A stretch of DNA of 64,000 nucleotides from Scolanthus callimorphus (Eukaryota; Cnidaria; Anthozoa; Actiniaria; Edwardsiidae). The stretch is taken from assembly GCA_033964015.1 (NCBI GenBank), contig CM066924.1, positions 4,074,251-4,138,250 on the forward strand, given 5' to 3'. Shown one piece after another: positions 1 through 54,360 of the stretch. A program made the translations under genes and the position numbers. Below the pieces are notes generated by a model. The model saw only the letters and a list, made by a program, of their open reading frames with translations, did not search any database and had not been told where the DNA came from. The number at the start of each line of letters is the position of its first letter. Position 1 is the stretch's first letter.

Positions 1-23
1 TTTGAGCAAGAACTCCGCCTAAA

Positions 24-145
24 CATGTTAGGGCAAGTTTGTGCACGCTCATTTGATTATGCGCACCTTCGCCTTTTTATTGGACGAGATACAGTTAGGC
101 TCCCAAAGGGGCTACAACATGTTCAGGGCAAGTTTGAACACGCTC
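24..145. repeat. Imperfect direct repeat upstream of the recombinase gene
   Basis: The motif CATGTT-(n)-GGGCAAGTTTG followed by CACGCTC occurs at 24-50 and again at 118-145, in the same orientation and about 95 bp apart. It lies just upstream of the tyrosine recombinase start codon. It may be part of an element terminus, a recombinase binding site or an unrelated duplication. Nothing in the window decides between these. Confidence 0.45.
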
Positions 146-266
146 CCTTTATTTGCCTTGCTATTGGCCAATAAGGGTTTTCGTACTCTAGGGACACATG
201 GATCGTATACAAACAACTGTCAGGTAAGTATATGTTCATTTCTCGCCTGCTCTCCGCCCAAGAAAG

Positions 267-2042
267 ATGTCGAGTAAAAAGTGCAAGCAAGTTGACTGGG
301 CTAAAATTGCAAATGCTTTTCCCAAACCGAAAAGACTTCACTTGGAGAAAGATGAATCTGATGGATTTTTTCACTGCCCAGTGCAGGCGTGCGATCACGA
401 TGGATTTGGAACTCAAAGAGGCTGCAGGAAACACGTTACTAGAAAGCACGGTTGGTTCTTTTACTTTGATCAGAAACCAAGCAATTCAGAAATTGAGGCT
501 TGTCAAGTTAACGAGTGCAATGGAAGCGCAAAGAAACCCAAATCCACCAGTGCAAGCAAATCGATTCCAACCTTTGAGCCATCAGGTGCAATTGCTAAAG
601 AATTCCTTTCTTGGCTCACTGGGAGTGGCGGGGGGTGCAAGAGCGATCGAAAAGCTCAACAAACTGTCAGCAAAAGCCTTAAGTTTCTCAGATTTTGTTG
701 TGATGACGAAGACGAACTGACTTGGAAAAATGTCGACTACAGTTTATGCTCTCCTAACCTTCTCTTTAAATTTGCTGATACGATGCAGGACACGTGGAAT
801 CTTGGACATGCAGGACGCTTAGGATACCTTGACGCCATTGGGGAGCTAGTGCAATTCCGAAAAGTTAGCGAAGGGTTGTCGGAAACAGTGACGAGAGGTT
901 TGTCAGTCACCGAGACGTACTTGAAAAGAGTCCGAAGAACAGTGTCGAAGATGATGAGATTGCAGTGGACCAGCGATCTGGACATTGATGTTTTAGAAGC
1001 CAAGGGTCACTGGGCATCGCTCGACGAACTACTGGAAGTTGTATCTCACTACCTTCCTCGATATGAAGAAGTGCTCAAGAAATGCAGGGACAAACCAGGT
1101 AGTGTTTGCTCGGGGGATTTATCGTTTGCCACAAAATTTCTAGCCGTCTACTTGTTCATCAAGGTAAAGGGATCCCGACCTATGACTTATCAGTACCTCA
1201 CAGTTGACATGGTTCGCACAGCGAAAACAAATGGGGGATTCATTGACCAGAAAATGTTTAAAACGGCAGGGAAATACGGTTTTGACTCGCTCCTTTTGAC
1301 CGACACTAACATGAAAGTTTTGGATGGATATATCAATCATATTCGCCCTCTGCAGAAACCAGCTTGTGATTACGTGCTAATGACGAGAAACGGAGGGCAG
1401 CACAACAAGCTCGGTGAGCTCATGAGTAAACTGGTCTTCGATGCCATTGGAAAGTACGTTCATCCGACGCGCTATCGACAGATCGTCGAGACTGCAAGTT
1501 CCAACCAGCTTAGCGCAAGAGAGCAAGACTCAGTTTCAGAGGATCAAAAACATAGCTCGGTTGTAGCAAGAGTGCATTATCAAAAGCAAAGATCTCGAGA
1601 GGTCGCAACGAAGGCGCGCCAATGCTTGGATAAACTACATGGCGACAAGGGAACAAAGCTGGAACAAGATGTGATTTCAAGGCTGTCAGACATCTCGTCA
1701 GCCTCCTCTCAAGAACAGGATCCGCACCATCTGTCCAGCGGTTCTACAGAAGAAGTAGAAAGTGCAGAGGAGGCGTTGCCACTAAAACGTGAGTGCAATT
1801 TCAATAAAATGCCAAGACTTTCACGCCAGCGCACTTTCAAAGTGGCGAACATCGATCGTACATGCAATAGAAAAAAGGCCATGTTGTTCACCCAGGACGA
1901 GGACAAATATCTCAAGGCCGGACTGAAAAGGTACGGGTATGGGCAGTGGACAGCTATTCTAAGAGATTCCGAGTTTCATTTCCAGAAAGGGAGGTCCCCA
2001 GACTCGTTGAAAAAGAGAGCGATCGCCAAGTTTCGCCAATAG
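267..2042 (+). CDS. Crypton-like tyrosine recombinase with C2H2 finger and SANT/Myb tail
   Basis: This is one uninterrupted 591-aa frame. A C2H2 finger is near the N-terminus (C37, C42, H56, H61, in HCPVQAC...RKHVTRKH). The middle has the residue order of a tyrosine recombinase: R304 (GSRPMTY), K336 (TAGKYG), H399-x-x-R402 (HPTR), H429 and Y438. The 9-residue gap from H429 to Y438 and about 27 from R402 to H429 resemble Cre-type enzymes. The last ~55 residues (FTQDEDKYLKAGLKRYGYGQW) are a SANT/Myb DNA-binding domain of telomere-repeat-factor style. Crypton transposons move by such enzymes, so the product should cut and rejoin DNA through Y438. All catalytic positions are present and no stops interrupt the frame, so it may be active or recently domesticated. 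The start at 267 is the first ATG before the finger. It is followed closely by the cyclin-like gene on the same strand. Confidence 0.8.
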   Translation: MSSKKCKQVDWAKIANAFPKPKRLHLEKDESDGFFHCPVQACDHDGFGTQRGCRKHVTRKHGWFFYFDQKPSNSEIEACQVNECNGSAKKPKSTSASKSIPTFEPSGAIAKEFLSWLTGSGGGCKSDRKAQQTVSKSLKFLRFCCDDEDELTWKNVDYSLCSPNLLFKFADTMQDTWNLGHAGRLGYLDAIGELVQFRKVSEGLSETVTRGLSVTETYLKRVRRTVSKMMRLQWTSDLDIDVLEAKGHWASLDELLEVVSHYLPRYEEVLKKCRDKPGSVCSGDLSFATKFLAVYLFIKVKGSRPMTYQYLTVDMVRTAKTNGGFIDQKMFKTAGKYGFDSLLLTDTNMKVLDGYINHIRPLQKPACDYVLMTRNGGQHNKLGELMSKLVFDAIGKYVHPTRYRQIVETASSNQLSAREQDSVSEDQKHSSVVARVHYQKQRSREVATKARQCLDKLHGDKGTKLEQDVISRLSDISSASSQEQDPHHLSSGSTEEVESAEEALPLKRECNFNKMPRLSRQRTFKVANIDRTCNRKKAMLFTQDEDKYLKAGLKRYGYGQWTAILRDSEFHFQKGRSPDSLKKRAIAKFRQ

Positions 2043-2175
2043 TGCTTATTTTGGCGCCCTTTCCCTTATTGGGACGCTGCTGAGTCTTTGCATGCCGGTA
2101 GTCAGCGCGAAACTATTAGAGCTGTAACATTTTGCGTGTTAGGCCTCATTTGCTGTTGAACGCCGAGGAGCTAAG

Positions 2176-2538
2176 ATGGACGCTGTTATTGATAAGCATC
2201 CCGAGTTGTCGTTACGAGATATCAAATTTGCTGGAGAGTTTATACGTGGAGTTTGCGTATCCAACTTTCCAACATCAACGGCCATTTTGGCGGAAAGTTT
2301 GCTCTGGCGCCATTTAAACCGGACAAGAAACCGAAAAAAGACTACTCTGAGGGAGCTGATTTTGGCGTGTCTGTTTATTGCCATCAAACTGGAAAACAGT
2401 GACATCGAAAGAACCTCCTTATTTATGGACATGATCTCTACACCGGTGCCAAAAACAGATATCTTAGAGGAAGAGCTAAATGTATTGGAATCTGTCAATT
2501 GGAGACCTCTGGAACATTACCATTTGATTAGCCTTTAG
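2176..2538 (+). CDS. Single cyclin-box protein, 120 aa
   Basis: The 120-aa product reads as one cyclin box: helix-rich, with LRELILACLFIAIKLEN and then ILEEELNVLESVNWRP. K71 and E100 sit where cyclins place the lysine and glutamate that contact a CDK, and their 29-residue spacing equals that of K266 and E295 in cyclin A (from family knowledge). There is no second cyclin fold and no destruction box. It starts 133 bp after the recombinase stop, on the same strand, and converges on the helicase gene. No intron is evident. It could be a captured host cyclin fragment used by the mobile unit, or an unrelated small gene. The cyclin-fold call is fairly firm. CDK binding is inference. Confidence 0.65.
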   Translation: MDAVIDKHPELSLRDIKFAGEFIRGVCVSNFPTSTAILAESLLWRHLNRTRNRKKTTLRELILACLFIAIKLENSDIERTSLFMDMISTPVPKTDILEEELNVLESVNWRPLEHYHLISL

Positions 2539-2542
2539 CAAA

Positions 2543-3100
2543 TGTTAGTGTAGGAACACGAGACGTTGTGCGTGATGTATTCGAAATGTATAGAGTGTCA
2601 TACGCGGGTAAAAGTTTAAGGCCGTGTAAAAACGCCATTTCAATTTTCCGTAGAACAAGGTGTGTGAAAATGACTCATGTCAATTATTTTTCGAGAAAAA
2701 AAAGTGCTTATCACGTTTGTTGCTATTTCGATTGCATGAAACATGGTGGCAAAGCGGTGCAATTTGGGAAGGAGGGCGCATTAGTTCCTATACAGCGGTG
2801 ACAATGATCTTTAATATAATCGGTGGCCAATTGTGAACAATGCTCCAATAAGAAGATGTCAAACATTGAGTACAAGCTATGCAGTTCTGGCGTAGTTTAT
2901 TTGCAATTTTCAAACGGTACATAAACATTATATATGGAATCCTGTCTTGTAGTAACAACAATCCGCAATTACCAAATTATTCGCAAATGCTAGTTTTTGT
3001 CAAATACTCGAGTTTATTTGGGCTATTTTGCCACTAGGAAATTATGCATTACAAGATGTTGTCTTAGCCTCTCCTTACCTACACAATACTCAATTAAATC
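2543..3100. other. Convergent intergenic region
   Basis: This AT-rich stretch separates the end of the cyclin-like gene (+) from the end of the helicase gene (-). I see no coding sequence in it. A reverse-strand AATAAA at 3013-3018, about 90 bp past the helicase stop, is a plausible polyadenylation signal. Confidence 0.5.
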
Positions 3101-3103
3101 AGA

Positions 3104-6100
3104 TTATTTCTGAGAGCGAAAGAAGGAAGATATCTTTGTTTGACGTTCTGGCACTTCTTGGGTGAGGGGACGTTTTCGTTTCCCGCTGTTGTTTATCAGG
3201 AACTCTAGAGGCTCATCTTCCTCTGGCAAGATGGAAGGCGACGGTTTGGACGTGGACGCTTGCGTCTTAAAGATCTCGACTTCTTCCTCGTCTTCTGTTG
3301 AACTTCCCTCCTGGTCTTCTTCCATCACTTCATCGCTCTCTTGAGGGATCATCCCACTCGTCTCGTTGGTTGGATCGCTCTTGCCTTCTTCCTCTGCGTG
3401 TTTCTGGCTCACATTTGCGCCATGGATTGGCCAGTTTTTCATCGGCAGCGCCTCGTATAGGGTGTTGACAAGATGTCGCGCCTCGGCTGGAGTGAAGATG
3501 CCCAGGTTTACCAACGCCAACCTTCGTGCTTTTATTGCATAATTGCAATGAGTACCAGCATCCTGGTGGATACTTCGAAGAGCGTCTTGGAGAACTTCAA
3601 TGCGGTATTTAACTGATCTTTGGAGGAGCGGACGATCTGGAGCCTCCGCAAATGCCTTCTGTAATTCACGCATTTCCTTTTCTCGCGCCAAAACGCGATC
3701 GTCTTGGAAAATCGCTTTGACTGCTGCTCTTTGATCCCTCTCACGCTCATCGTTCTCCTCTTGGAGACGGGAACGCAACACACCCATGCGCTTTTCCTCT
3801 ATGTCTTTCGGGAGATGCCATGGACTTTCTCGGATGCGCGTACGCTCGTCCTCGGTAAGCTCTACGTCCTTCTCAATACTGCAAAGATAAACAAAAACAA
3901 ATCGAAACCAAACATTGTTGTATTTCAGTACCATGTTGTTGCCATGGCAACGGGAGCGAAATTTACCGTTTAATCGCGTCCTCCACTGAGTCCCTTAACC
4001 TGTCCTCTCTTGCACGATCCCTAGTGACCACCAGTTCTCTAAGTTGGCGTTCGGCCAAGCTCCCCTTTCTCGCCCTCAGCAGCTCACCATCTATCTCCTC
4101 TTCTTCCGTCTCCGATTCGGATCCTCTGGTGTCTTGGCTATTGGAAGGGTCGATTACTTGAACTAGTTCTTCAACGTTCGGGTCGACTTTGAACAGCTCG
4201 TCAATATCTGATTGGTTCAGTTCCCCATCTCCAATAAGGGCCATGGAGGTATCGTGCTGGGTGGGGTTGGTGGTCGTTTCCGTGCTGATCTTTAAAGCTG
4301 ACCAATGGATGCAATCCATGGGATGTTTTTCGAGCCACTCGATTGCACCTGGGTGTACGCTAGGAAGAGCTCGGAACATGTACTTGTTAAGACGGGAATC
4401 CATCGCAGGATTGTGTTCTTCAGTCTGGCAAGTCATAATCATGGGAATCCTGTTGATGAATCCTTTTGCGGACTTGTATTTGGCGTCGTTTGCCGTCCAT
4501 CCGCCTTGCGTAATCACCTGCAAACGAGCAAAAAGAATCGTTCTGCACGCACTAAAATAGCAAGCCATTTATCATGATTTTGAAGTGATTAGTTTGGAAT
4601 TGGTGGACGTTGCGAATCCCTTTTCACTAATAATGCGGGATAATGAGTCTTCCGTTTACCTTCCAGTCGTCAATTTCCATCAGCTGTTCGGTCGCTTCGT
4701 CCAAAAAAAGTACCTCACAGTCCCGGCTTAACATGGATTTATTAAATGCCTTTTGCTTCGTTATCTTACCAATTCTGTAAAGATAAAGTGGATGAAAGAG
4801 AGAGATTAGTCATCCAGTGTTTTTTTTTGCAACACAACAATGCGTTGTTGTATTGCAACGTACGGTTTATCCTTACCTGTGCGGGGGAACGATGCCGCGG
4901 ATAGGAGCGAAAAGGCTTGTTTTCCCGCTATCAGCGCTCCCCACTAGGCATGGTACCTGAAACAAAGAAACCAAAAAATATACAAAATTAAAGTATAAAG
5001 ATTTTTATTTGTTTGCTTACTTGATGGCTCGCTTTAGCATACCTTTTTTTAGCATACAAGTTTTTCATACCTTTTGCTTGTGAGCTTTCTTGTTGAACCT
5101 CAGAAGATTCATGAAGTCCTTACAAAAGAACTTCACTTGATTGTCGTCTAAGCTGTTTTCCAGGGTGTTCTTGAAATATCGCGGCTCTGGACCGCTAAAG
5201 TGGTCGTATGGGACGAATGCTCTAGGTGAGAAGTTACCAACATCGCTTTCTTGGATTGGGTCTTTCAAGAATTTCTGCTGCTCAACAGAAAAGCACCAGC
5301 CGTCATTCACTTCTATCCAGTCATAGTTAACTGTAAGTTGTCTAATGGCCTGACTCTCTGGTCTTGACAGGCGCTCGCGGACGTGATCTCCATACTTGAT
5401 TAAGCCGTCCCTGAAGTTTGCATTGCCTTCCAACACGCCCAACCAATCTGACACGCTACACTTATAGGCAAATGTGTACTTCGAATCCGGCACATGCTTG
5501 TAGACAGACCCTCGATATAGCCTGTAGTTTAGGGCTTTCATTGCTCTTTCGAGATCGCTGAACAACAGCACTTTAGGGTCAGTCGTCAACTTTCGTGCGT
5601 CGGTTTCGGGATTCATAGCTTCATTGTCAGCGTGTCCGAACGTGTCCACTTGAAGTCCGGCTTTTTTCAGAGATTCCAAGGCATTTCCAATTTGGTCGTT
5701 TATGGATGACGATGCTTTTGACCTGAAAATAACCACTTTTTCTGTAGGGCAGGCCAATGAAGTGGGTAGTAAATACTCGCAGGACATCTGGTCTGCAACA
5801 TCGGTCATAATAGCTTTATACGAACTCTCAACCAGACTGATGACATAGCTTGAACTGTGGTCTTTTAGAACTGGAAAAAGTGCCTTGATGGAGCTATCTG
5901 CGTTCTTTTGTACTTGCACGTCAATTTCAAGGTCACAAGACAGCAAAGCCTTCTTTATGGGTAGCTTGGAAACTTGGGCACCGGTAGAACTTGAAAACGC
6001 CATCCAGAATGTAAACATTGGGTATTGTTTGCGATCAGCCGCCATTGCGAAGCTACACTGGCCCTGGCTTGAAACTTGCGAGCTCTGTGAAACTCCACTA

Positions 6101-6432
6101 TCTAGACTCCCGGCATTTTCATTGTCTTCTTCCTCGCCATCTTCCTCGCCATCACCTTTCTTTTTCAGTTTTTTGGGAGGCTCTTTGACGTTTATGGCCG
6201 AGAAATAAAACTCCAAACCATTTAATCCGGTCAATGCACTGTTACACTCGTCTCTTTTCTTGCATATCTGTTTCCACGCCTCCGATAAGTCTTTTCTTTG
6301 GACTCTCCATACACAAGTAGCAGTCACTACGCACAAGCGATTACGTATGATTGGAGTAAAGTAGCAAGAAGCGGCGTCCTTGATTGCCTTGCTGTTAAGT
6401 TGCCTTGCCGGATGCTTCGCTCGTCTATACAT
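3104..6432 (-). CDS. Superfamily-3 helicase with C-terminal PIP box, five exons
   Basis: Exons (reverse strand): 6432-5071, 4956-4877, 4774-4660, 4517-3967, 3878-3104. All join with GT-AG introns and matching phases to give 960 aa. SF3 motifs are visible: Walker A GSADSGKTS (G460-K466-T467), Walker B VLFLDEA (D506, E507), a B' segment (QGGWTANDAKYKSAKGF, from 523) and motif C (RIPMIMTCQ). The usual motif C Asn is replaced by Q550. The set is closest, from memory, to parvovirus NS1-type helicases. The N-terminal 450 aa have an acidic stretch and no HUH nickase motif that I can find. Residues 704-960 are charged and end in QTKISSFF (949-956), a textbook PCNA-binding PIP box (Q-x-x-I-x-x-F-F). 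The likely role is ATP-driven unwinding at a replication fork. The frame is intact. The gene is convergent with the recombinase and cyclin genes and is probably part of the same element. Confidence 0.72.
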
Positions 6433-6918: not shown

Positions 6919-8560
6919 AATCCGTCAATCCGTTGAACCGGCAAAAATGTTTTTTTTTTACGCCCACTTCAAGATGGCGGCTAGCTCGTATAAATATTCA
7001 TTATGATTCGTATATTCTCGTTCTATTAGTGAATTGAGAGGAGGACGTTGACCTGCGAACTCTCTCGTAGCTCATGTGTAAGATGTTGGATTATGAATAG
7101 GTAATTTGCACAGGGTTTAGGGTTCGCACCACCATGAATCCTTTTTCCTTTTTTCTCAATAACTTGACTTAAAATATTCTAAGTGCCATAAAGTGGACGT
7201 AAATAAAAAAATCGGCCGGCAAAGTACAAAATTATTTCATTGGAGCTGAAGATTGAAAAGAGTAAATTTTTCAGGAATAACGGATGGACGGATTCGCGGA
7301 TTTCCCTATATATTCTCTATTAGAATTGACATCCGTCAATCCGTTGAACCGACAAAGTAGAAAAATTACTGCATTGGAGTAAACAGTTAATTTTTCTGGA
7401 ATGACGGATGGACGGATTCGCGGATTTCCCTATATATTCTCTATTAGGATTGACATCCGTCAATCCGTTGAACCGACAAAGTAGAAAAATTTTTGCATTG
7501 GAGTAAACAGTTAATTTTTCTGGAAGGACGGATGGACGGATTCGCGGATTTTTCCATACAATTTCTCATAGGATTAAAATCCGTCTTTCCGTTCATCCTT
7601 CAAGGGAGAATATTTTTTACATCATCATAAAATTTGGATAAAGTAATGATTTAAAATTATAAAAATTGTAATTCTATGATGTTAATTATTAATAATTATC
7701 TTATTCATGATATCAAATTAAAGTTTTTTTTATTATTATATGATAAATTATATTAATATATTATTATAAAATAATAATAAATTAATAAACGAATGTATTA
7801 ATATATATCTTTATAATAAATATATTATCTTTTATATATTATATATATTATATTATAAATTATATTAATATATTATTATACAATAATAAAATTTATTAAT
7901 ATATATTTATAATTAATATATTATCTAATAAATTCTTACTAATTAATTAATTTTTTACTAATAATTTATTATTATTGAAATATTTATTTCATTGATTAAT
8001 TAAATAATTTAGATACTTTTTAATGATTATTATTATTATAATAAATTATATTAATATGTTATTACACAATAATAATATTATCTAATAAATTCTTACTAAT
8101 TGATCTATGTTTATTACTAATACTTTATTATTATTATTAAAATATTTATTTCATGTAATGATTATTTTTTTCACTTGCGGAGTAACGGAAATACGGATTT
8201 CAATTTTAACAGAGACTGCATAGAAAAACCGTGAATCCGCCCATCCGTCCTTCAAGAAAAAAAGCTTCCATGGCCATCCCTTTTTCAAAGCAAGTAGCTA
8301 TTATTTTCGACGTTGAAGGATGGGCGGATAGACGGATCTCATGAACAACAGAGACTGTATAGAAAAATCCGTGAATCCGTCCATCCGTCCTTCATGAAAA
8401 AAGCTTCCATGGCCATCCCTTTTTCAAAGCAAGGTAGTATTATTTTCTACTTTGAAGGAATGGCGGATAGACGGATCTCATAAACAACAGAGACTATATA
8501 GAAAAATCCGTGAATCCGTCCATCCGTCCCTCAAGAAAAAAACGTTTCCATTGCCATCCC
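6919..8560. mobile_element. Fold-back element with tandem subrepeats and AT-rich core
   Basis: The left side has about three tandem units of ~124 bp (CGGATGGACGGATTCGCGG at 7281, 7405 and 7529), each followed by an ATCCGTCAATCCGTTGAACC block. One such block stands alone at 6919. The right side has three units of ~140 bp around GAATCCGTCCATCCGTCC (8231, 8373 and 8511), which are the reverse complement of the left units. The centre, 7600-8165, is almost pure A/T with TAATTAT/TATTAT runs. Inverted arms made of tandem subrepeats around an AT-rich core are typical of fold-back DNA transposons. No coding sequence was found inside. Confidence 0.75.
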
Positions 8561-8879
8561 CTTTTCAATGCAGGAAACAAAAGTGCAAGTGCAAAAGTAC
8601 CTTCGTTTAGAATCTTATCTACTTGTTAGATGTGATTTGAAACCTGATTGAGCATAACAATATAGGAACGGCTGGTTCCTTTATTTGGTGTTCCTGCCCA
8701 GTTGGACCCTGCACTTGAAAAAGTAGCGATTGCAACGCCGAGGAAATTACTTTCCTGGTAACATCATGAAAAATCGATAGAGGTTTTGGGCATCTGCTCG
8801 AAAGTAGTTAAATGGGGATTACGCGTTTGGGGAAATTCGAGAACAGCGCACTCAAAATTAGAGGAACACAATTTTGGGA

Positions 8880-9305
8880 AACGATCCTGTTTTCTTCCAT
8901 CTTCTCTCCTCTTCCATCTTCCTCCTCTACCATCTTCCTGTTTTCTTCCATCTTCTCTCCTCTACCATCTTCCTCCTCTACCATCTTCCTCCTCTACCAT
9001 CTTCCTGTTTTCTTCCATCTTCTCTCCTCTACCATCTTCCTCCTCTACCATCTTCCTGTTTTCTTCCATCTTCTCTCCTCTACCATCTTCCTCCTCTACC
9101 ATCTTCCTCCTCTACCATCTTCCTGTTTTCTTCCATCTTCTCTCCTCTACCATCTTCCTCCTCTACCATCTTCCTCCTCTACCATCTTCCTGTTTTCTTC
9201 TATCTTCTCTCCTCTACCATCTTCCTCCTCTACCATCTTCCTCCTCTGCCATCTTCCTGTTTTCTTCCATCTTCTCTCCTCTACCATCTGCATGTTCTCT
9301 ACCAT
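8880..9305. repeat. CT-rich minisatellite
   Basis: Tandem array built from CTCCTCTACCATCTTC blocks alternating with CTGTTTTCTTCCATCTTCT. It is strongly strand-asymmetric: pyrimidine-rich on + and purine-rich on -. Several long frames cross it but they are only translations of the repeat. Confidence 0.9.
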
Positions 9306-9499
9306 CTGTGTGTCCTCTACCAATTTACTGTAAAGTATGACGTAAATGTTGAATTGAATACCGCCGTCGATACAGCGGCTGTTTTCTACTTTATGATTGG
9401 CTGTTTTTTCGATAGTATGGGATACATAATTTGAGCATCTCATTAATCGCTCTAATCCTGTGATGTTAAAGTATTATTCTCTCCTTTTCATTCATAAAG

Positions 9500-10329
9500 C
9501 GTGTGACAATCCAATAGACATCGTGTTTGGGATCCCCATGTCGCGCTATCTGGGATCAGCTATCGGGAACATTAAATCCACGTTCGGCGCCATCTTAGAT
9601 CTCCTCAAGGTCAACCCTCTAAAAGCACACATTGGAGTAGTACCCTACAGCTCCGAAGCTGACTTGGCGCTCCACCTCGACTCTATCTATGACAAGAAAG
9701 ACATTGCTAATTATATAAAAGCGTTACCTCAAAGCAAAGATAGCGGATATGATCTCGTAAAACCGCTTCAGATCGCAGCTGACAGAGCTTTCACACTCTT
9801 TGGTGGTGTTCGACAGACTGTCCCTAAAGTCTTCGTGCTTTTTGTGACGGGGAGAGGAAGCAGTGATCTCAGGTCTGTCCAGGATGCAGCCAAGAAGCTT
9901 AAGAGTCTAGGAGTGAGGATTCTTATAATAGGACTGACGAGTCAGGTTGATCGAAGCTTCGCGAAATCCATTGTATCCCAGCCTTCTTCCGTGTACGTGA
10001 CGACTGCCAATACCTATAGCGACCTGGTTGTGAAAGCGCCGATGGTTGTAGACACGATCTGTAAAGGTATGATTCTAAGCCAGATCCCAACTAGCGTGAT
10101 AAGGATCATAGTAGTTATGAGAATTGTTTGTTATGTTTGTTTATATGTTTTGATTGGGACGATTCGTCATAAGCGTCGTAACATAATTGACGCTTGGCTG
10201 AAAATGTGAAATTTGTCGTCGAATTTCTTGTCGTCACGCTTATGTCGAACGTGAAAAGCGAACGAGCAGTGCTCAATGACAGTGAACAACTATCCCCCTA
10301 AGGGGAGGTGAAAAGCGGTGTATATCTAT

Positions 10330-10364
<35 letters not shown>

Positions 10365-13300
10365 AGGCACCGACTTTTGCCCGTCACAGGAATCCTGGAA
10401 GCCGAAAATAAGCATTTCCGGATAACACCACAGCAGAGTCGACTCACTGGCTAGACCAAAAATTTCAATCAAAAGTCAAAACTTCGAATGCTATCAATAT
10501 TGTGCTTGCTACTGACGTACGGCTCTTTTCATCCTCGACAGATGCCAGATATGGCAAATGCCCCACGTCACCCTCTCCCCCAGGAGGAATTTGTCCACCC
10601 GTGCCCAGCATCGACTGTTCTCTAGATAGCGAGTGTGCGTCGCCGAGCAACGTGTGTTGTTTCGATGAATGTGGATCAAGCAAATGTGAAAGAGGCATAA
10701 AAAGTAAGTACCGTAAAACCGTAAATGTTTTTTCGTGTATTACTGGTGGACATTTTGCTCGTTGCTCGTATTTTCCTCACCCCTGTGGAGCTCGAAAAAT
10801 ACGTCCGAAACTCGTAAAATATCCGCCCTGTAATAATTTTTTTTTCCATGATCGATATTAGAGGCGAGAGGTCGATGTGGTCCCCTCGTATCACACAGGA
10901 GAAAAAATAAAACAAGAACAAAGCAAGAAGCACAGAAACACAGATTACAGCAAATTATCTTAATGACAAAAATTGAAGGGCTCCAGTCTCCCAAATAATA
11001 TTCTGTTCGCTACGATAACAAACTTTTTTTTTCAGATTGTTTTGTGCCAGCAGATATCGCCTTTGCATTTGACGTTTCAAGTTCAGTCAGCGACAAAGCC
11101 TTCCAAGACTCCAAAAACCTAGCCATGGATATTGTTCGTCAGCTATCATCCTCAGAAAATAATATTCACCTTGGGATCTTAAAATACAGCTCTGTAGCTA
11201 CCCCAGAGACTCGAGGATTCAGAAAATTCCGTTCCGAGGACGAGCTCCAAGATATACTAAACAAAATGGAGAAAGGAAGAGATCGCATCAAACGTGTTGA
11301 TCTTGCATTCAGGACGGCTTATCGGGAATTTTTCAGCGCTAAAGGAGGAAGAAGATTTGGACATCCTAAGTTCTTGATATTTTTTGATCCAACAATCTCC
11401 ATTGCTGGAAATGAGACTTTGAGTTCAACGTCTGCCGATCTACGAAGAGCAAAAGTTAATATTGCTACTTACACAGGAAATAAGACGTTCGCTAGCATTT
11501 TTGGAGATGGAAACACGCTCTTCTGTAACAGTAATGTATCAAAGATCTTTCTCCTCTATTTCTAGATAAGAGACATCCTTTGTGTATAGCTATTTCATTA
11601 AGGGTTGCTTTGAGAAACAATTGTTTAGTCGCTCTTAAAGCGTCCATTATTTCAGTGCTTCTGTGTTGACTTTCTTACAGCTAAAATCGTTGCATTGCGT
11701 GGCTTTTCCTTCCCGCCAGCCAAATTTTATAAGCCAATCAGATTCTTGCCTGATGCCGTCGCCTGGCTTTCCGTCGCGACGTCTGGTTTTCGTCCAGAGG
11801 GAAGCCTGGCGATTGCGCTCGGCTTACATGACCTTACATGGTTTCACTGGCGGTTTGAAAACATGGGTGAAAACGTACGATGGGAGGTTTATAGCTGTAG
11901 GAGTCAATAGATGAGTCACTAGATTGACTATTGGGTAACTATTGACTATTTGACCAATAGAAAACGGGTAGCGTAAAGGATTTTTCTAGCGCGAGTTGCA
12001 ATTCCAACTCTTGTGTAATCCAGATGCAAATCCGGTGCGATTTTTGTGCTCCCTTTTCTTCAAATCGCATCAAGTTGCAAAGAGTTTCGAAGATGTTTGA
12101 AATCTCCGCGACATCTCGTGACAAAAATCGCGGCATATCGCGCCGAGTCGCATCTAGTTTACATTAGTGATTAGAGTTGCACGTACGTGCGAGAAAAATC
12201 GCTGCGACTCGCGCGACAAAAATTGCAGCAAAAATTGCAAGTGTAAACGGGCCTTAATACTTTCGGTGGATACGTGACTACGTACTTGGCAGTGACTAGT
12301 GGAGCCAATCAGATTCTATTATTCGTGGTAGTATGCTTAGCCTCTTTCGCAGCCGCTTGCGTATTGCTCGTTTCACTTTCTCCCCAAAAACGTCTGCTTA
12401 ACCAAACTTTACATTCCATTCCCTTTGTTTCCGATTAGCGACTCAGTAGCCAATCAGAATTGAGATCGGCTCAGGCCAAGTATCAAGTCTCCCGCGCTGT
12501 TGTTTCACTTAGTCGAACCGTCGAAGGGAAGTCGGTTGGGCTGGAAATTTTTCCCAAAATTTCATCGGACTCAAGCATCCTCTCCCAAACAGTGCTTATT
12601 CAGGATATTCAGATACGGGGTAAAATCTTGTGGAACAAGAAGGGAGAAGAACGAGCTACACGTGAGCGTTGCATAGGCTAAGGTTTCTATTTTTTTATAA
12701 ACTATAAAGAGGAAAGCCTAAGGTCTTATGGGATTGCGAAAAATAAGTTCAAATTTACTTTGTCTGATATGACTTGTTCTCGATCCTCAGAAAAACCAGG
12801 AAAGTGTCAAGCGGTCCTCAACAGCGACCCAGCCGCATGCGCATTCTCACCAAAGCCATCCGCTGACATGATACCATGCGGGCGCTCGATGGCAGGGAAG
12901 GAGAGCCAATCAGATCGCGAGAACGACTGGGACTGTCCAGGGGAGGCTAAGTGCTGTTTTGAGCCCAACAATGGTTGTCATCACGTGTGTGTTCATCCGC
13001 CACTTGGTAAATTGAACCTTGAATTTGTGGTGTCCCTCGGGTATTGTTTTAGGACCATTACCCAATGAAAGTGGAAATATGAGGGCCATGATAGACTGAA
13101 TTTCACATGACTGTAGTGAACCAATCGCGAAGTGATTACACGGCCAATTCTGAATAAAACCTATAACTGGATTCCAACGTGAATAGTTGTTAGATATATC
13201 ATTCTATCTTTGGCGTGAGTACTGTGGTTTTAACGTCTAAGTTCTGGTATATTGGCTTGAGAGACAGGAGCTTGGTTTGTTGTCTCATCCGAACGACTTG

Positions 13301-14245
13301 AAACGCAGGCGAAATGACGAATCACTTCAACCCCAAATGAACACAATGTTCCGGTGCACAGTGGTGAGAGGCAAACGCCTTGCACGCTGCACCACCCATG
13401 CTTCCTTGGGACGTGGGAGTCATCATCCTGAGCGACAGTACTCACACAGATAGATAATATTTTCTTTCCAATACTATTCCCAGTTTGTAAGAAGCCTAAA
13501 GACCTCCTCTTCATTGTGGAGTCATCTGAAGAGTTAGGAGAGCCAGGATTCAAGAAAGTAAAAACTTTCACCAAACAAATCGTGGACGCGTTCGACATAT
13601 CTCCACAAGAGACCAAAATCGCCTTCATCACCTATAACCAACAACCGACGGTAAACTTCCGGTTTGACACGCTAAGAGGAAACCGGTTAAACAAGAAAGA
13701 CGTGTTAGACAGGATTGACAAGGTCAGATATAACGGCGGGAGGTACGCCAGGACCTTCCAAGCGCTGCAGGTGGCCAGGACAGAGGTGTTTAGAGAAGGG
13801 AATGGAGTAGGCCCACTAGACAAAACCTCTAAGGTATCGCTATCTCAGTTTATCTAGTGTTCACGAGTCTTTACCTCAAATTAAGGAGAGGACAGACGAG
13901 ATCGGCACTGATAGCTGCATGACCGTAGCTAACACGTGCGCTAGGGAGTGGGGGAGGGGGGTAGCCGCAGTTTCGATACACTGCGTATTTTTGCCAATGA
14001 GTACAAAGATGCGTCGCTACGAACACTTATATTCTTATTAATTTCAGACATTGGTCTTGTTCACTACGGGGAAGTTCCAAGATCGCCAGCGAGTCGCAGA
14101 GGAAGCCTGGAACCTACGGGGTGAACTCGTGGACGTGTTTGTGGCACCTATCGGCGAGGACCCGGATGTAGAGAGCATCAGGTATGACCAGGAACATATA
14201 ATTGAGTTGAAACTTGTAAATACCGAAGGTCGCGACGGTGCCAAG
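9500..14245 (+). CDS. Extracellular vWA-WAP-vWA-WAP-vWA protein (partial)
   Basis: Exons: 9500-10066 (vWA 1), 10542-10703 (WAP 1), 11036-11530 (vWA 2), 12791-13006 (WAP 2), 13484-13833 plus 14048-14245 (vWA 3). The single-exon domains are bounded by phase-1 introns, the usual mark of shuffled extracellular modules. vWA 3 is split by a phase-0 intron. vWA 2 keeps the metal-site motif DVSSSVS. vWA 1 (DIVFGIPMSR) and vWA 3 (LLFIVESSEE) have lost DxSxS, so they probably bind without the metal. Both WAP modules show the four-disulfide cysteine pattern (CCFDECGSSKC; CPGEAKCC...GC..VC). WAP domains often inhibit proteases and vWA domains bind matrix. A secreted matrix or adhesion protein is inferred. 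No signal peptide or first exon was found. The 3' end is also uncertain: a donor-like CAG|GTATGA lies near 14180 and another site near 14214. Confidence 0.72.
10287..10375. mobile_element. Palindromic MITE with GCGAAGC hairpin core, copy 1
   Basis: A hairpin, AGCGGTGTATATCTATCGAG then ACGCGAAGCGT then CGAGGTATATATCCACCGCT, lies inside the first intron of the vWA/WAP gene. The same core and the flank CGCTAGGCACCGAC recur at 15653-15730. Confidence 0.7.
11693..11870. mobile_element. MITE of the AAGCCAATCAG family (partial)
   Basis: Contains TAAGCCAATCAGATTCTTGCC and a CGTCGCGAC centre, matching fuller copies at 20235-20470, 37215-37385 and 61875-62050. It sits in an intron of the vWA/WAP gene. 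Confidence 0.6.
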
Positions 14246-14600
14246 GTACGAAACATTCAAAACACCAAGGAACACTGTGGCCATGTTCATGTTTGAGGGC
14301 TTTGTCTTTCTTACGGCAGTACGCGCGCGCTGTTCGCCTTTAAAATCGTCTCGACGGCTGCTATGCAAACCTACTACATACAGTTTAGGGTCTTTCCTGG
14401 AGATCATATCCCACCCTTGACCAGATCTATTGTTCGTTAACCAAGATGGAGCATCCGACTTAATCAACGTCGAGCACAGCACGTAGGGAATGCTTCCGCG
14501 CCAGGAGAGAACTGGAATGACTACTACTGTGGAAGCAATCGGGTAGAGGACGTCTCGCGAGAATAAGGGAATACCACTTCAGAAGAACTTGGCAATGTAA
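14246..14600. other. No supported gene
   Basis: This follows the last recognisable vWA exon. Short frames on both strands show no domain and no good exon signature. It may hold 3' sequence of the vWA/WAP gene. Confidence 0.3.
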
Positions 14601-37501: not shown

Positions 37502-40500
37502 TTACGGAACGGACGAAGGTTTTGGAACCTGTCCGGATTCTACAAGAGGACTTTGCAATGAATTACCCACTATAACAGATGTACATTCTATAGAATTGTT
37601 CAATCCCGAAACTTCGGCAAGGGATGCACTGGATTTGAAGACGCTGTCTTGTACTTCGTGGCTCGAGATTGAAGAATTTTCAGATTGATCCATGGCAGTC
37701 CCGGCTGGTACTTTATCTTTATACTGCAAACTCTCTGCTTTTGACAGCGGGTAGCTGGTACTACCTAATTCAGCAGATGTTGGAGCAGTGCTGGAGCTCT
37801 CTAAACTTTCAACATCGCTCTTTCTTGCTATCTTGTGGGCTCTATTTCCCGGAGAAGAGGCGGGACGTTTGATAGCGGGGTTTTGACCACCTTCTGTGCC
37901 ACTACCGCTTGGATCACGCGTTATGGAAGACACGGCCGCTCCATCGTTAATTTTACAACTAGAATCTACGGGAGAACTCGTGGCAATACACGAGTTCTTG
38001 CTTGGTGCTAATATCAAAGTAGGGGCAACCTTTGCAATGTGGTTTGGCTTAGATAGACCTGCTGTGAGCGGAACTTCAACTTTAGATAAACTTGGGCTTT
38101 CGTCTTTGCTTTCAGAAATAGGAGATGCTGTTTTGGGCAACTGATCGTTTTTAGGGTTTTCTGCGCTCAAGCCAGATATAAGAGTTGGTACAATTCTACG
38201 CCTCTGCTCTTGCTTTACTCCATTAGTCCCCCCGCCGACTGATTTGTTTGTACCCGGGGCAGGTACAACGCTGGGAAGTGCCTTGTTGTCACCAGGCGCG
38301 CTGATCAGGGTTGGCAGTATTCTTCTCTTGGGGGGTACTTCACTTTGCTGTACATCTAGGGACAGAGATGCACGCCCTACTCCCGCATCCGCTGGTTGAC
38401 TTGATTTCACTGTTGGCGAGCAGACATTTGCGCTAGAGACATCAACGCTAGAAGATGCTGTGTTTGCTGCTGCTGGAGTCGAGACTAACGTGGGTACTAT
38501 TCGTCGCTTGGATCCAGTCTGACTTCCCTTGGCTGTAGCATTTGGAGAATTATTTACCTCACCTTGGTTTCCCATTGCCTGGGACTCACTGGACGGGGTT
38601 GTACAACCAAACTGTGAGACTGGAGTCAGCGCTATTCTACGCTTAGCTGGTCTGTCTGTCTCTGGACCAGAAATAAGAGTTGGGTTGATTCTGCGCTTAG
38701 CAGCGCTGTCGATGGGCTGATCATCGTCAACGATAATAACATCGCTCGATGAAGCGCACGCGTCGCCCGCAGTAGCTTTAACTGCATTCCCACTTTCCTC
38801 AATTCCTTCCATCTGCGATTCCCGATTTTCCGGCGATTTAGTAGTCTGCACAAATGGAATAGCTCCAGGCTTTGGAGGGCTAACATTTGACATACCAGGA
38901 GCAGGAGAAATGTTTCTGGACATTTCAAGTCCTGGAGTCCATACTTTTCCAGAATGTTCGTGTGAACATACCACCTGAATTTATCATAGCGTCTTTCTTT
39001 GACAGCAATAGCTTGTATTTTACGCTCAAGCTGGCGTCTTGAAATGTGCCCTTTGCCTTGCAAACCCTCGGGGACTTGATTACCATGGCGTGGAAGGCAT
39101 TTGTTGGACCAGTATTCTTTGAAGTTTTTCACAAGCTTCAGAACGCCAGCGGTGCTTCCGTGGGCGTGTCGAATAAGGTCGGGCATTGCTGAGAAGAAGA
39201 AAAAAGAACACGGCAATTGGTTAAAAATCAGCAAGGTGGGTTCGCTACTACGACCCAAACAGGGGATGTTGAACCCCGTCAAATCCAGGACACAGGGGTT
39301 AGAGGCAAAATTGAGGCAAACAAAGGGGCGGATAGGGCATACGTCGATTTAAGGTAGCGTCGATGTAGCCTAACTAATAATGTAATGTAATAATGTAATG
39401 TAGGCACTTGTATACCGCAAATTATCATATGAATATGTTCAAATGCGGTTTACAGATGTGGACATGTCTGATCCCTAAGATGCGGACTGCGATTTATACA
39501 ATGCAGTTTACAATCATGAGTGGTTGTTAGATTACATTCTGAGATTACAACTGAGAGACACTAGTGCATTTTATATACACGTACCTTCTTCTGGAACTAT
39601 CATTGCTGTGGGGTGCACCCCTCTGGAGTACTGCCAGTGACAGAGTTCCCAAGCACATCGCTACTCTCAGACTCAGTACACGGGTTGGTATTCGTGCTAG
39701 ATTCGTACACCAAAGATATCGCCTCGAACTGCTTTAGGAGATCATGAGCACCCGCTTCGGTACTCCAAAGGCAGCCAATAGCCACTGGACGCAGAGGCTT
39801 GAATTTCCTCTTCAGTTCGGCCTCCCACTGTTTAGCTTTTGCGAGTTGCTGCTCTTGTTTTGCTTCTGGGTTTCCCTGGAGAGAAACAAGTGTTCAAGTT
39901 GTTAATTCTCAACAGGTTTCTATCATCTGGTGGGCAGGTTTTCTTCCTATACGTATATGACATACACCTATTTGAGAAAAGGTTGCACCGTAACGACTAG
40001 TGAAGGGGTTGCAAATGGGCCCCTGAAAATCTCGAAATGTCACAACTTTTAGCGTGCGTCTCGGAATCTCGGATTTTATGCTTGAGTTGCCTAATACTAA
40101 TACAGAACATATATGAGCTGATACTATTTTAGAGTCTTCTCGAATTTTATGCATTAGTTGCCTTAATCGGGATTCTCGCTCGATTCTCGCCATAGAACGA
40201 CCTTAAAACAGCCAACCAACGGATGCTAGCAGGCTAGTTTACCATTCGCCAGTCTGTTGTAGCTCGGGCTGCGCCATGAGAAACTAAGAACAAAATTCTC
40301 GTGTGAATCCAGTACAAATTTCTTACGAGTTATGTATTGTACAAGTCGCAAAACAGGGTGATAAGTACGGCTATTTATCCTAAACAAAGTGTGAGTGTCC
40401 ATCATTCTGTTTTGGTATACCTATTTGCGGCGCGTATTAGAGCTTCAGACGAGTGTCGAAAACTAAACGCAAATGCAAAACCAGTAGCCAATCAGGAGTG

Positions 40501-43500
40501 GAAGCCATTCAACAACAAACCAATCAGGAGTGGAAGCCATTCAACAACAAACCAATCAGGAGTGGAAGCCATTCAACAACAAACCAATCAGGAGTGGAAG
40601 CCAATCAACAATAAACCAATCAGGAGTGGAAGCCATTCAACAACAAACCAATCAGGAGTGGAAGCCATTCAACAACAAACCAATCAGGAGTGGAAGCCAT
40701 TCAACAACAAACCAATCAGGAGTGGAAGCCAATCAACAATAAACCAATCAGGAGTGGAAACCATTCAACAACAAATCAATCAGGAGACGAAGTAAGTCAG
40801 ACTTGCGTTCAGTCATGACGTGAGCATTGGCGTGTTTTGATTTAGTTCCAATTTTGATTGGCTTAAAGACAAAAACTTTGCTCTCGACCAATAGAAACGT
40901 TGAAATCTGCTCTAAAGGAAATCAGGGCAGTATAGAGTTAGACTTTACCTCCTCATCTTCACCATTTATACCCTCATCATCAGACAAGTATCCATGTGGG
41001 ACAAAGAACCCATCACCGTCTTCTTCATCATCAGCTTCATCTTCATCTTCACCCTGAAAAAAGTTACTGTGAGCCTCAGGATTGAATCATCTCTAGTCAG
41101 CCTGTTCTTTTAGTATGAAAACAGATGACCAAACCTTTTAAGTTGACCAAAGTATGGCTAAAATCGTGACCCACCCCTTTCACATCTGTCTGGGGTAGGG
41201 GTATGCATCATTCTCGTACCCAGAGCTCCCTTGCCCGGCACCCTACGGGGGAGGCTCTGCTTACAGCCAATTGACATGCGCCAACGTTCAAAATCAGCCA
41301 ATGAGCATGGACCCTCAAATGGTTGTCACCAGAGCCTTTCCCATGAGCCTGTGAGCTCTGGATAGGAGAAGGGGCTGCATATTTTATAGCCTGTTGCATG
41401 GCCAAATCATTGAAAATCTCTCATACTTTTCTCAGGCTTTTCACTGACCCTAAAACTCCACGGAAGTGCTTACTACACAGGCTACATTTTATGACAAAGG
41501 CATCAGTTTACTCACCTCACTGTTTGAGAGACTCTCCCCAGGCTCCTCCTCCTCCCATTCTTCGTCACTGTCAACCTCATAGTCCAAGAGGACCTGGCAA
41601 AGAAGCACATGAATTAGCATAATTATATTATGGTATCCCTGTGTTGGGTATAGAGGTTACATCAACTCATCAATAGGTGGGGTTGAGGACCCACGGAAAA
41701 TTTTCCAGGGGGTTGTATTGGACTCTGGAAATTCCACGGGAGGGGATGTGTCTGGAGACTGGAAATTCCAAGGGGGAGGGGTAAAAAGGTGACTTTCCAG
41801 GGACGTTTTATCCAAAAATAGTTTTTCCAGGGATATTTTGCCAGAAAAATGGAAATTCCAGGGGAGGGGGGCCTTTATGAGGTTGGAAATTCGAGGGGAG
41901 GGGGACAGTGTCACAAGTGGAAATTCCAGAGGAGGGGGTCTTTTTGAAGGGAGGTCCTCAACCCCCAGGTGCGGTTTAAAAATGCAATCTGCCAACATAA
42001 GATGGAGGGTTGGTGCCATCTAACCAGGCACTATCAGCAATAAGGTTCCCATGGCAACAACGCCAGTCAAACTGATTTCTCAGTAGAAGTTATAAAATGC
42101 TTAGACATGGCACAACACAATACTGTTTACAGCATGGACACACCACATGCTGTGACTTTTTCACAGTCAGGTTTATGCGGAGTGTCCAACCTAGAGACCT
42201 AGAGATTTTTGTGCCAGATGCGGGAGTCACCCCATCATATGAAATCATATCTATGAGCTCCTCCTACCTTGTCCTTTTTGAATGGGTTCCTCGGTGATAT
42301 CATTTTGCTTCTCTTTCTTTGAGTCCCATAATACGCCGGCCTGTAGTTCTCCTTGAACTGTAGCAAGATGGCTTTCATGTACTTCTTGTCATCATTTGGC
42401 TGTTCTATTTCTACAATGGAGCTCTGATTACTTGTTTCATCATCAGGAATCACAATTTGTCCACCATCATCCTGATTGCTGTCATCAACATCCATCGGTT
42501 CATCTTTTGCTGTTTCAGAAGCTTGTTTCTGGTTGCTTCTGCGCATTGCTTTTACTAAGTGAAGTGGTTTTCGGCTTGACAGTTCGTGTATGTAAGTTGA
42601 TGTTGTTGTGTCCTGTAATACAAGAAATCCATACAATGTCAAAAATATATACCTTAAATTGGTAGTAATTTTCGCAGGCACTTAGTTCACGGGCATATTT
42701 CACGGATCTTTTTCGAGATTTGGTGCAAAATTTTATTTCAAGAATTTTATTATTCTTTTACACTTCTTATTGCTGAAAATCGTCAACTCATAACAAAACC
42801 AAACTATAGAAACCACATCGTGTACCATAGGCATAGTCAAAGTCACATCCTTATGCTTAACTTTCTTCGCAATTGACCGTTTTCACGATGTTGTGAGAAC
42901 AATACCCTTGAGCCGTTCCGACTCGTTCTGGCGAAGACGGCTTTCGTTATTCAAAACAGACAAGCATTGTTCTCATCTCATTTATTTTGTGCGCAACATT
43001 GTGAAAACTGCCAATTGTATAATACATATTTTCATTATAGCCATGAATTCTTCATTAAATTAAGGAAACAAGAAATACAGGAGGGTATTAAATTTTGTGA
43101 CATTAAAGTTCACAGGAATTTCTTTGGTGTCGCTTTAAGGTCACAACTTTTTTTAAATCGCGAAAATATATAGCAATGGGAAAATTAGTAAGGTACTCAT
43201 ACTCCTCAAAGGGGGTGTGGCTGACGAAGGTCAGATAGGCATGCTGTGAGTTAAGCTCACTCATGATTCCACTTGTCTGGAAATTCATATACCCTGTTCA
43301 CATGAGAAGAGCTATGGGGGATATGGATATACCCCTCACCAGAGTTATCTTGGGCTGAGCCATGTTTTTATAAGATATGTCTCTGTGTTGAAATGAAATC
43401 GTTCAAATGGAACAGCTTGGGGTTTGGATAACTCAGTTTGGAAGGCAGGGATAACCTTGGGGGAAATTTTTCTGTGCTATATGATCCATGCAACCGGTTC

Positions 43501-49950: not shown

Positions 49951-50319
49951 ATTGCGCAATATTCCCTCTAAATTCCTTCTATATACATCAAACGATACTT
50001 AAACTATTAATCTAGCACATGGGCTGGGTAATCGAACGAAAAGAAAGCCTTAAATTAGTGAAATCTTTGTTGAAATTCGTTTTGCTTTCACTCTACACTC
50101 CTCGCGGGATTGAAAATTGGCGGGAAGTGCGAGTGAGACCGAAAAGAATGCTGGGATATCATGCGAGAGTAGGCCTGGCACTAGTCAGTTTGCAAAGAAC
50201 TCTGGGTAATATTTTAAAAGCGCAAGGAACCCTGGGATAGCTTCATTCCAAAATGGCGGACACGACATGAGTTTTCGAAGTCCAAAGAGCTGAGTAAAAG
50301 CTGTTGAAGATCTTATAAA
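49951..50319. promoter_or_regulatory. Shared divergent promoter of CHAF1A and POLR2J
   Basis: Only 369 bp separate the two divergent start codons. The interval has an E2F-like site (TTGGCGGGAA, 50117-50126) and a YY1-like AAAATGGCGGA (50250-50260) about 60 bp before the POLR2J ATG. No TATA box is evident on either side. E2F control would fit CHAF1A as an S-phase gene and YY1 sites are typical close to housekeeping start sites. Both are consensus matches by eye. Confidence 0.6.
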
Positions 50320-53786: not shown

Positions 53787-53789
53787 CAG

Positions 53790-54360
53790 AAGCGACGAAA
53801 ATGCAATATTTAGCTGAGTTAGTGAAGTGAAGTGAGACAGATCTCGCTAAACTACTAAATCCAGTTATGTCCTAAGGATATCATGTATTGCATAAACATA
53901 CGGTAAATACTTGCAAGCTTATTTATTTTATAGAAATACAAGCCTGGAGATAAAAATACAACGTTTAGTCTAAATTTGCGACTGGTTAAAAATTTTTGTC
54001 TCAAAATCCAATTTTTTGTCGCAACTTTTAGTGCATGAAACATCGTCATGGCGCTCCACTGCAGTTGTCAACACTAAATTTGGGATTCCTTCAGCAAATT
54101 TAGGGCTGTCTGACAACAATTAGCCATCACGAAAGAAACAAACTGGTAAATCTAAACTTTTTAAACATGCTAGCTTAAGAATATGGTAGCAAAGTTTCAA
54201 CTAACTAGCCTGGACTAGTTGACCTTAGTGTGGTCTTTCCCCTAAATAATCACCAGGGATGGCGGAACAGTTTTCAAAGTGGGGGGGGGGGGCTTATTTA
54301 GCAAGATTGTATGGTAAGGTGGGGGGGGGGGGGGGGAGCTGAGTCTAGTAAAAATGTAGA
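53790..54360. other. 3' flank of POLR2J, no gene
   Basis: AT-rich, with two poly-G tracts (54283-54292 and 54320-54335). No coding exon was recognised. Confidence 0.35.

What the first reader, a model, noticed from the sequence alone, without database searches (positions are those of the whole stretch)
1..6432. A Crypton-like recombinase, a cyclin box and an SF3 helicase with a PIP box packed together
Three intact genes in 6.2 kb encode activities that make sense as one element: DNA integration, CDK contact and fork-linked unwinding. Cryptons are normally described as little more than a recombinase gene. A recombinase-led element with cargo recalls the layout of fungal Starships, whose captains are also Crypton-related. 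If the genes travel together this would be a replication-coupled eukaryotic mobile element of a kind I do not know of.
Basis: partly seen in the sequence, partly recalled or inferred. Interest (0 to 1): 0.88.

Follow-up and report, generated by a model that had tools for sequence, protein, structure and literature searches.

The report
Recombinase–cyclin–helicase block in a cnidarian
A cnidarian-like genome carries, in at least two places, the same compact three-gene block (a likely DNA-integrating enzyme, a small cell-cycle protein and a likely DNA-unwinding enzyme with a replication-clamp tag), which looks like a mobile element that may copy itself with the host's DNA replication.

Summary
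In detail: window 267-6432 contains an intact tyrosine recombinase (YR; C2H2 finger, YR motifs, Myb; 591 aa), a one-box cyclin (120 aa) and, convergent to them, a five-exon SF3-type helicase (960 aa) ending in a PIP box. Are they a unit? In 300 kb sampled from the window's own genome I found a second block (contig C12, locus L107) with the same three genes in the same order and orientation: YR 68%, cyclin 71% over its whole length, helicase 33-50%, with a PIP box again at the helicase's end. Synonymous sites are saturated while pN/pS of cyclin and YR is 0.23-0.24, and a 12-base motif found before both YR starts (138 and 142 bp; a further copy at 237 bp in the window) occurs nowhere else in 364 kb. 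Chance adjacency is practically excluded. Not shown: element ends, an empty site, excision, replication, or linkage in other species (the genome search tool did not complete). Crypton membership is not met where tested (no DUF3504 match, extra domains and genes); Starship parallels are loose. Best reading: a new YR-led element family with a replication and cell-cycle module.

The parts
22..58 (+). first copy of an upstream direct repeat holding the motif AGGRCAAGTTTG (motif starts at 30, 237 bp before the YR start), candidate recombinase or end site
   Evidence: 84% repeat of 116-153; motif found only upstream of the two YR genes in 364 kb scanned
116..153 (+). second copy of the repeat (motif starts at 125, 142 bp before the YR start; 138 bp in the second block L107)
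267..2042 (+). tyrosine recombinase, 591 aa: C2H2 finger (37-61), YR catalytic residues R304, K332, H399xxR402, H429, Y438, C-terminal Myb (541-584)
2043..2175 (+). 133-bp gap between YR and cyclin, with two E2F consensus matches (2050-2057, 2105-2112); these are not conserved in L107
2176..2538 (+). one-box cyclin, 120 aa, single exon
   Evidence: Cyclin_N 5.8e-10; full-length 71% partner in L107 of the same length
3104..6432 (-). SF3-type helicase gene, 960 aa, convergent to YR and cyclin; exons 6432-5071, 4956-4877, 4774-4660, 4517-3967, 3878-3104
4660..4956 (-). exons 2-3 with Walker A (GSADSGKTS) and Walker B (FLDEA)
3104..3142 (-). C-terminal PIP box QTKISSFFRSQK and stop
   Evidence: partner QSSILKFFKTK in L107 and IxxFF in P0001

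Best explanation
A family of tyrosine-recombinase-led mobile elements of cnidarians whose core is a conserved three-gene block: YR, one-box cyclin, and a convergent SF3-type helicase with a C-terminal PCNA-binding (PIP) box. Shown: the three genes occur together, in the same order and orientation, at two places of one genome, and cyclin and YR were under purifying selection since those blocks parted. Inferred: the YR cuts and rejoins DNA at sites near its own 5' end (the AGGRCAAGTTTG repeats are candidates), releasing and re-inserting a circle; the helicase, which has no HUH nuclease motif, opens the element's origin and, through the PIP box, engages PCNA so that the circle is copied by the host replisome, as large T or E1 does for small DNA viruses (recalled); the cyclin box binds a host CDK so that this happens in, or pushes the cell towards, S phase. 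I put the conserved unit at about 0.95, mobility at about 0.75, and the replication mechanism in this detail at about 0.35.
For: Second block L107 (own genome C12:10001-20000): YR 3538-5290, cyclin 5379-5741, helicase 8864 down to 6088 on the minus strand. Identity window/L107: cyclin 70.8% of 120 codons, YR 68.4% of 452, helicase exon 1 32.9% of 425, helicase core 49.6% of 135; synonymous sites saturated, pN/pS 0.23, 0.24, 0.55, 0.39. PIP-like C-terminus IxxFF in 3 of 3 helicases whose end is known (window, L107, P0001). Gap YR-cyclin 133 bp in the window, 88 bp in L107; cyclin and helicase stops 565 and 346 bp apart. Motif AGGRCAAGTTTG: 3 matches in 364 kb (window plus 30 sampled stretches, both strands), all on the + strand upstream of the two YR genes. 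The window's right neighbour, a VWA gene, has no match in the 30 stretches at E 0.01. A third helicase copy, in pieces and truncated, lies next to L107 (L098 9466-7463), so this genome holds at least three. YR catalytic residues kept in 119-121 of 121 proteins. L107's YR is closer to a protein of another source (P0079, 83%) than to the window's YR (67%), as expected of old element lineages that outlive species.
Against: No terminal repeats, target duplication, empty site or circle was found; of seven flank comparisons none exceeded all shuffles. Non-coding flanks share nothing by blastn, but at saturated synonymous divergence they would not align even after a plain segmental duplication, and the window's left flank is not available beyond 266 bp. 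The YR family is far more often seen in the protein collection than the helicase: 838 proteins (7994 candidates scored) against 7 for helicase exon 1 (1040 candidates) and 1 for the whole helicase (7995 candidates), and the YR has a 92% relative (P0002, 166 members) while no helicase is nearer than 64%. The helicase evolves faster and is harder to find (P0001 was not found again), but many YR copies may lack it. L098 has a helicase with no YR or cyclin in its 10 kb at E 0.01. The window helicase has four introns, unusual for a mobile gene. Only two blocks were seen, both in one genome. No curated YR profile was matched, the Pfam helicase matches are below cut-off, and the AlphaFold models were too poor to use (mean pLDDT 44 and 47).
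Confidence: 0.73

Rival explanations
1. An immobile host gene cluster of ancient, perhaps domesticated, origin that was duplicated long ago as a segment; the YR and helicase now serve a cellular task such as amplification or DNA elimination.
For: Low pN/pS for cyclin and YR with saturated synonymous sites; introns in the window helicase; few helicase clusters in the protein collection, some on long contigs.
Against: The VWA neighbour of the window block is not found near L107; the L107 YR and helicase run through several frames and L098's helicase is truncated, which suits an element more than needed genes; YR relatives are many.
Confidence: 0.14
2. Relic or latent form of a DNA virus (for example of the polinton-like or a polyoma/papilloma-like sort) whose capsid genes are lost or lie outside the block.
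For: The helicase core is nearest to papillomavirus E1 and parvovirus NS1 profiles, sub-threshold; PLVs combine a tyrosine recombinase with an SF3 helicase (PMC12220804 and PMC4642659, passages seen); viruses are known to carry cyclins (recalled; viral cyclins appear weakly, E 0.44-0.8).
Against: None of the frames scanned against Pfam matched a capsid family, though the flanks were not searched systematically; peptide-pattern scans of 2.9 million IMG/VR contigs gave no relative of YR, cyclin or helicase.
Confidence: 0.11
3. Chance adjacency: an ordinary YR transposon landed beside unrelated host genes.
For: YR family is much more numerous than the helicase in the protein collection.
Against: Second block with same order and orientation; 88-133 bp between YR and cyclin; the cyclins of both blocks have the same length and align end to end.
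Confidence: 0.02

Closest known systems
Crypton DNA transposons (CryptonA of animals)
   Same: Tyrosine recombinase as the presumed mobility enzyme, no terminal repeats found, animal hosts including Cnidaria (PMC3212892: abstract, sections 5, 8, 17 and passages seen)
   Different: Animal Cryptons are described there as having no C-terminal domain; that they hold little beyond the YR gene is recalled. Here C2H2 and Myb domains and two more genes. No DUF3504 match.
Starships of fungi
   Same: YR gene at one edge of a multi-gene block (recalled; only the start of the abstract of PMC12134995 seen in a search listing)
   Different: 6 kb rather than tens to hundreds; the partner genes look like a fixed replication module, not variable cargo; no captain-type profile matched.
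Polinton-like viruses and virophages with YR integrase and SF3 helicase
   Same: Tyrosine recombinase plus SF3 helicase in one integrating element; circular donor proposed (PMC12220804, PMC4642659, passages)
   Different: They carry capsid genes and primase/polymerase fusions; the passages seen mention no cyclin.
Telomere-inserting YRs of endogenous nimaviruses
   Same: C2H2 finger plus an N-terminal helical domain plus YR in an animal element (PMC10871703, passages)
   Different: Large viruses; no Myb domain mentioned in the passages seen; relationship not tested.
Polyomavirus large T / papillomavirus E1 / parvovirus NS1 helicases
   Same: SF3-type P-loop core, weak profile matches to E1 and NS1
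   Different: Long N-terminal region with no Pfam match, C-terminal PIP box, chromosomal, intron-bearing.

Membership tests
Tyrosine recombinases | Catalytic R...K...HxxR...H...Y | tested here: met
   119-121 of 121 proteins keep each residue; nine residues from H429 to Y438, as in XerD
Tyrosine recombinases | Match to a YR profile or fold | tested here: inconclusive
   No Pfam, PHROG or NCBIfam integrase match; hhalign to 79 XerD-type integrases probability 31%, above 20 shuffles; AlphaFold model too poor for a fold search
Crypton | YR related to Crypton/DUF3504 | tested here: not met
   No DUF3504 among Pfam matches of 14 members (HMMER's filters drop most matches above about 0.1); no Crypton sequences at hand for a tree
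Crypton | No C-terminal domain and no partner genes in animal members | tested here: not met
   Myb domain in 13 of 14 members; two further genes in 2 of 2 blocks
Starship | Captain (DUF3435-type, recalled) YR | tested here: not met
   No captain profile among Pfam matches of 14 members
Starship | Large variable cargo and target site duplication | not tested
   Ends unknown; block is 6 kb
SF3 helicases | Walker A and Walker B in E1/NS1-like setting | tested here: met
   Aligned in four members
SF3 helicases | Match to a curated SF3 profile | tested here: inconclusive
   P0001: E1 8.7e-05, NS1 0.0025; window core NS1 0.0068; all below cut-off; no solved structure matched by sequence; the third motif ends in TCQ in the window, not the usual Asn (recalled)
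Cyclins | Cyclin_N box | tested here: met
   5.8e-10 and 4.5e-11, above cut-off
Cyclins | CDK binding | not testable with these tools
   Sequence only; second cyclin box not found
PCNA clients | PIP box QxxhxxFF | tested here: met
   QTKISSFF and QSSILKFF at the C-termini of window and L107; P0001 has IxxFF without the Q
Mobile elements | Multiple insertions with defined ends and an empty site | tested here: inconclusive
   Two blocks with no shared flank found; ends not resolved
Polinton-like viruses | Major and minor capsid genes, packaging ATPase | not tested
   No systematic capsid search of the flanks was run

The most novel reading that the evidence does not exclude
A capsid-less, self-amplifying integrating element of animals: a tyrosine recombinase makes and inserts circles, an E1-like helicase bearing its own PCNA hook replicates the circle through the host fork, and a one-box cyclin tunes or forces S phase. 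It would be a eukaryotic counterpart of an integrating plasmid; the paper searches made listed no such animal transposon.
Probability: 0.35. Interest if true: 0.93.

Novelty: new variant of a known kind. Interest (0 to 1): 0.82.

Why it matters
Tyrosine-recombinase DNA transposons of animals are thought of as little more than a recombinase. A block that adds a replication-type helicase with a PCNA hook and a cyclin, and keeps the trio together long enough to saturate synonymous sites, would be an animal mobile element with its own replication and cell-cycle control. It would give a natural one-box cyclin and a PIP-tagged helicase to study, and a possible link between YR transposons and small DNA viruses.

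Tried and rejected
Chance adjacency was my first reading, because the YR was so much more numerous than the helicase in the protein collection; the second block overturned it.

Fold evidence: both AlphaFold jobs gave models too poor to search, so no fold search was run. Sequence and profile searches of the PDB found only Myb-domain proteins (mostly TRF1/TRF2, some CHD1) for the YR and nothing useful for the helicase.

E2F sites: two TTTSSCGC matches in the 133-bp YR-cyclin gap (13 in the window against 7.1 expected, 4 of 100 shuffles reach 13) tempted an S-phase promoter story; the L107 gap has none, so I do not rely on it. Telomere targeting: the Myb domain resembles TRF2 (E 0.0017), but telomere-like matches in the window are no more than expected (3 against 3.65); left open. 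Terminal repeats: comparing the left and right flanks of the two blocks, and left with right within each, gave nothing above all shuffles (the left-left comparison was reached by 13 of 300 shuffles, the YR-cyclin gap by 10 of 300). A 27-bp minisatellite lies on both sides of the L107 block but may be a common repeat. Peptide-pattern scans of IMG/VR for YR, helicase and cyclin found no relative, and of GTDB genomes none for YR. Papers: the searches listed no report of such a block by title or abstract start; this covers only the held open-licence library.
Full report
What is in the window. A single open frame at + 267-2042 encodes 591 aa with a C2H2 finger, a YR-type catalytic region and a C-terminal Myb domain. 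A cyclin box of 120 aa follows at + 2176-2538. On the other strand, converging on them, five exons (6432-5071, 4956-4877, 4774-4660, 4517-3967, 3878-3104), their introns with GT-AG borders, join to a 960-aa protein with a P-loop core and a PIP box near its last residues. To the right lie AT-rich repeats (7.2-8.6 kb), a minisatellite (8.9-9.3 kb) and an animal-type gene with VWA and WAP domains (9.3-14.5 kb).

Is the first protein a tyrosine recombinase? No integrase profile matches it in Pfam, PHROGs or NCBIfam. I built a family of 121 proteins (the window's plus the 120 listed of 838 found) and aligned it with 79 XerD-type integrases fetched for the purpose. Residues 330-450 align with XerD 166-294: the histidine of XerD's LGH falls on H429; the HxxR motif lies two residues off; the tyrosine follows the histidine by nine residues in both, though the program set a three-residue gap before it; R304 lies outside the aligned part. 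Score 36.5, probability 31%, P 5e-4, against 19.0 for the reversed family and 24.2 for the best of 20 column shuffles. R304, K332, H399, R402, H429 and Y438 are kept in 119 to 121 of 121. I take it as a YR, on motif plus moderate profile evidence. The AlphaFold model was too poor to help.

Is the third protein an SF3 helicase? The relative with a full C-terminal half is Oculina patagonica LOC144666234 isoform X2 (P0001, 37%). P0001 matches Pfam PPV_E1_C (8.7e-05) and Parvo_NS1 (0.0025), the window core Parvo_NS1 (0.0068), all under the curated cut-offs. Walker A and B align among four members. No HUH motif occurs in the 960 aa. Exon 1 has seven relatives at 56-63% in the collection; four of them (P0122-P0125) end at, or up to 11 residues past, the same exon border, so intron 1 is probably shared.

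The test of the unit. The whole-genome search did not complete (23 attempts), so I took 30 stretches of 10 kb from the window's own genome, mostly contig ends, and searched them locally with the three proteins. Of 30 stretches, one (L107) holds YR and cyclin, and two (L107, L098, both from the start of contig C12) hold helicase at E 0.01. A weak YR-like hit in L096 (E 0.043, 48 residues) was not counted. The sample is neither random nor large, and L107 was fetched because L098 beside it had a helicase, so I draw no copy number from it.

L107 contains a YR (3538-5290, running through three overlapping frames in its first third, so apparently broken twice), then after 88 bp an intact 120-aa cyclin (5379-5741), then after 346 bp the convergent helicase (8864 down to 6088, in four overlapping frames, so apparently broken three times; splicing as an alternative was not tested, but residues 443-594 run in one frame across the first three window intron positions). 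Order and orientation are those of the window. The cyclin aligns over all 120 residues at 71% and stops at the same place, so the one-box form is the real gene and not a fragment. Window against L107: YR 68.4% of 452 codons, cyclin 70.8% of 120, helicase exon 1 32.9% of 425, core 49.6% of 135; synonymous sites are saturated; pN/pS 0.24, 0.23, 0.55, 0.39. Both helicases end in a PIP box (QTKISSFFRSQK, QSSILKFFKTK), and P0001 in ITHFFKPTQE, without the leading Q. Thus the PIP box survived where two thirds of exon 1 did not. The pattern itself is not rare: a second match sits at residue 136, and 1448 of 20000 shuffles hold one somewhere, but 24 of 20000 in the last 20 residues.

The motif AGGRCAAGTTTG, noticed by comparing the two upstream regions, occurs three times in 364 kb on both strands: 237 and 142 bp before the window's YR start and 138 bp before L107's. 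It was chosen after looking, so its value lies in its absence elsewhere and its matching distance. It is a candidate recombinase or end site. No terminal inverted or direct repeats joined the two sides of either block. Flanks share nothing by blastn and the VWA gene has no match in the 30 stretches; at this divergence only missing shared genes, not missing non-coding similarity, speak against a segmental duplication.

What this means. Three genes kept in one order over such a distance, twice in one genome, are a unit. Copies in pieces (L107, L098), no shared neighbour, and a recombinase whose catalytic residues are kept in 119-121 of 121 proteins favour a mobile element over a host cluster, but no end, empty site or circle was seen. 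Against a strict unit stands the count of relatives: 838 for YR, 7 and 1 for the helicase, and a 92% YR relative (P0002) with no helicase closer than 64%. Listed proteins are redundant: the 121 YRs fall into 40 groups at 95% and 20 at 85%.

Mechanism. Inference: YR handles excision and insertion of a circle; the helicase opens the origin and recruits PCNA; the cyclin supplies CDK contact. None of these activities was tested.

Known things. Cryptons of animals lack a C-terminal domain (PMC3212892, abstract, sections 5, 8 and 17 and passages). Endogenous nimaviruses carry YRs with a C2H2 finger that insert into telomere repeats and are not closely related to Cryptons (PMC10871703, passages). Polinton-like viruses combine YR and SF3 helicase, with capsids (PMC12220804, PMC4642659, passages). 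A report of a cyclin with either was not met in the searches made (listings).

Noticed in passing
window 7257-8572: AT-rich stretch flanked by inverted repeats of about 98 bp built of 124-bp and 139-bp tandem units; looks like a non-autonomous repeat.
   Followed up: no
window 8885-9322: Minisatellite of TCCTCTACCATCTTCC-type units (51/67/118 bp periods).
   Followed up: no
window 9301-14500: Host gene with VWA domains (4e-57) and a WAP domain, right neighbour of the block.
   Followed up: partly
window 37502-38974: Minus-strand ORF with repeated RRI.PTLIS motifs; no Pfam match in the frames scanned.
   Followed up: partly
window 41000-54000: Several CpG-depleted 1-kb bins (observed/expected down to 0.1) in contrast to 1-26 kb, mostly 0.7-1.2; possibly methylated gene bodies.
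   Followed up: no
window 267-2042: The recombinase's Myb domain resembles the telomere-binding Myb of TRF2 (E 0.0017, residues 530-570).
   Followed up: partly
L098 1-7482: Tandem units of about 1.7 kb, 96-98% alike, that border the truncated end of a helicase copy in pieces (9466-7463 minus).
   Followed up: partly
L107 836-2549 and L108 3604-3990: The same 27-bp minisatellite lies left and right of the second block, about 11 kb apart; possible insertion into an array or just a common repeat.
   Followed up: partly
L103 (G000 C20:1-10000): 75 CCCTAA units within 10 kb of a contig start, perhaps telomeric.
   Followed up: no
L096 1948-2091: Weak YR-like match (29% over 48 residues, E 0.043), not counted.
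   Followed up: no
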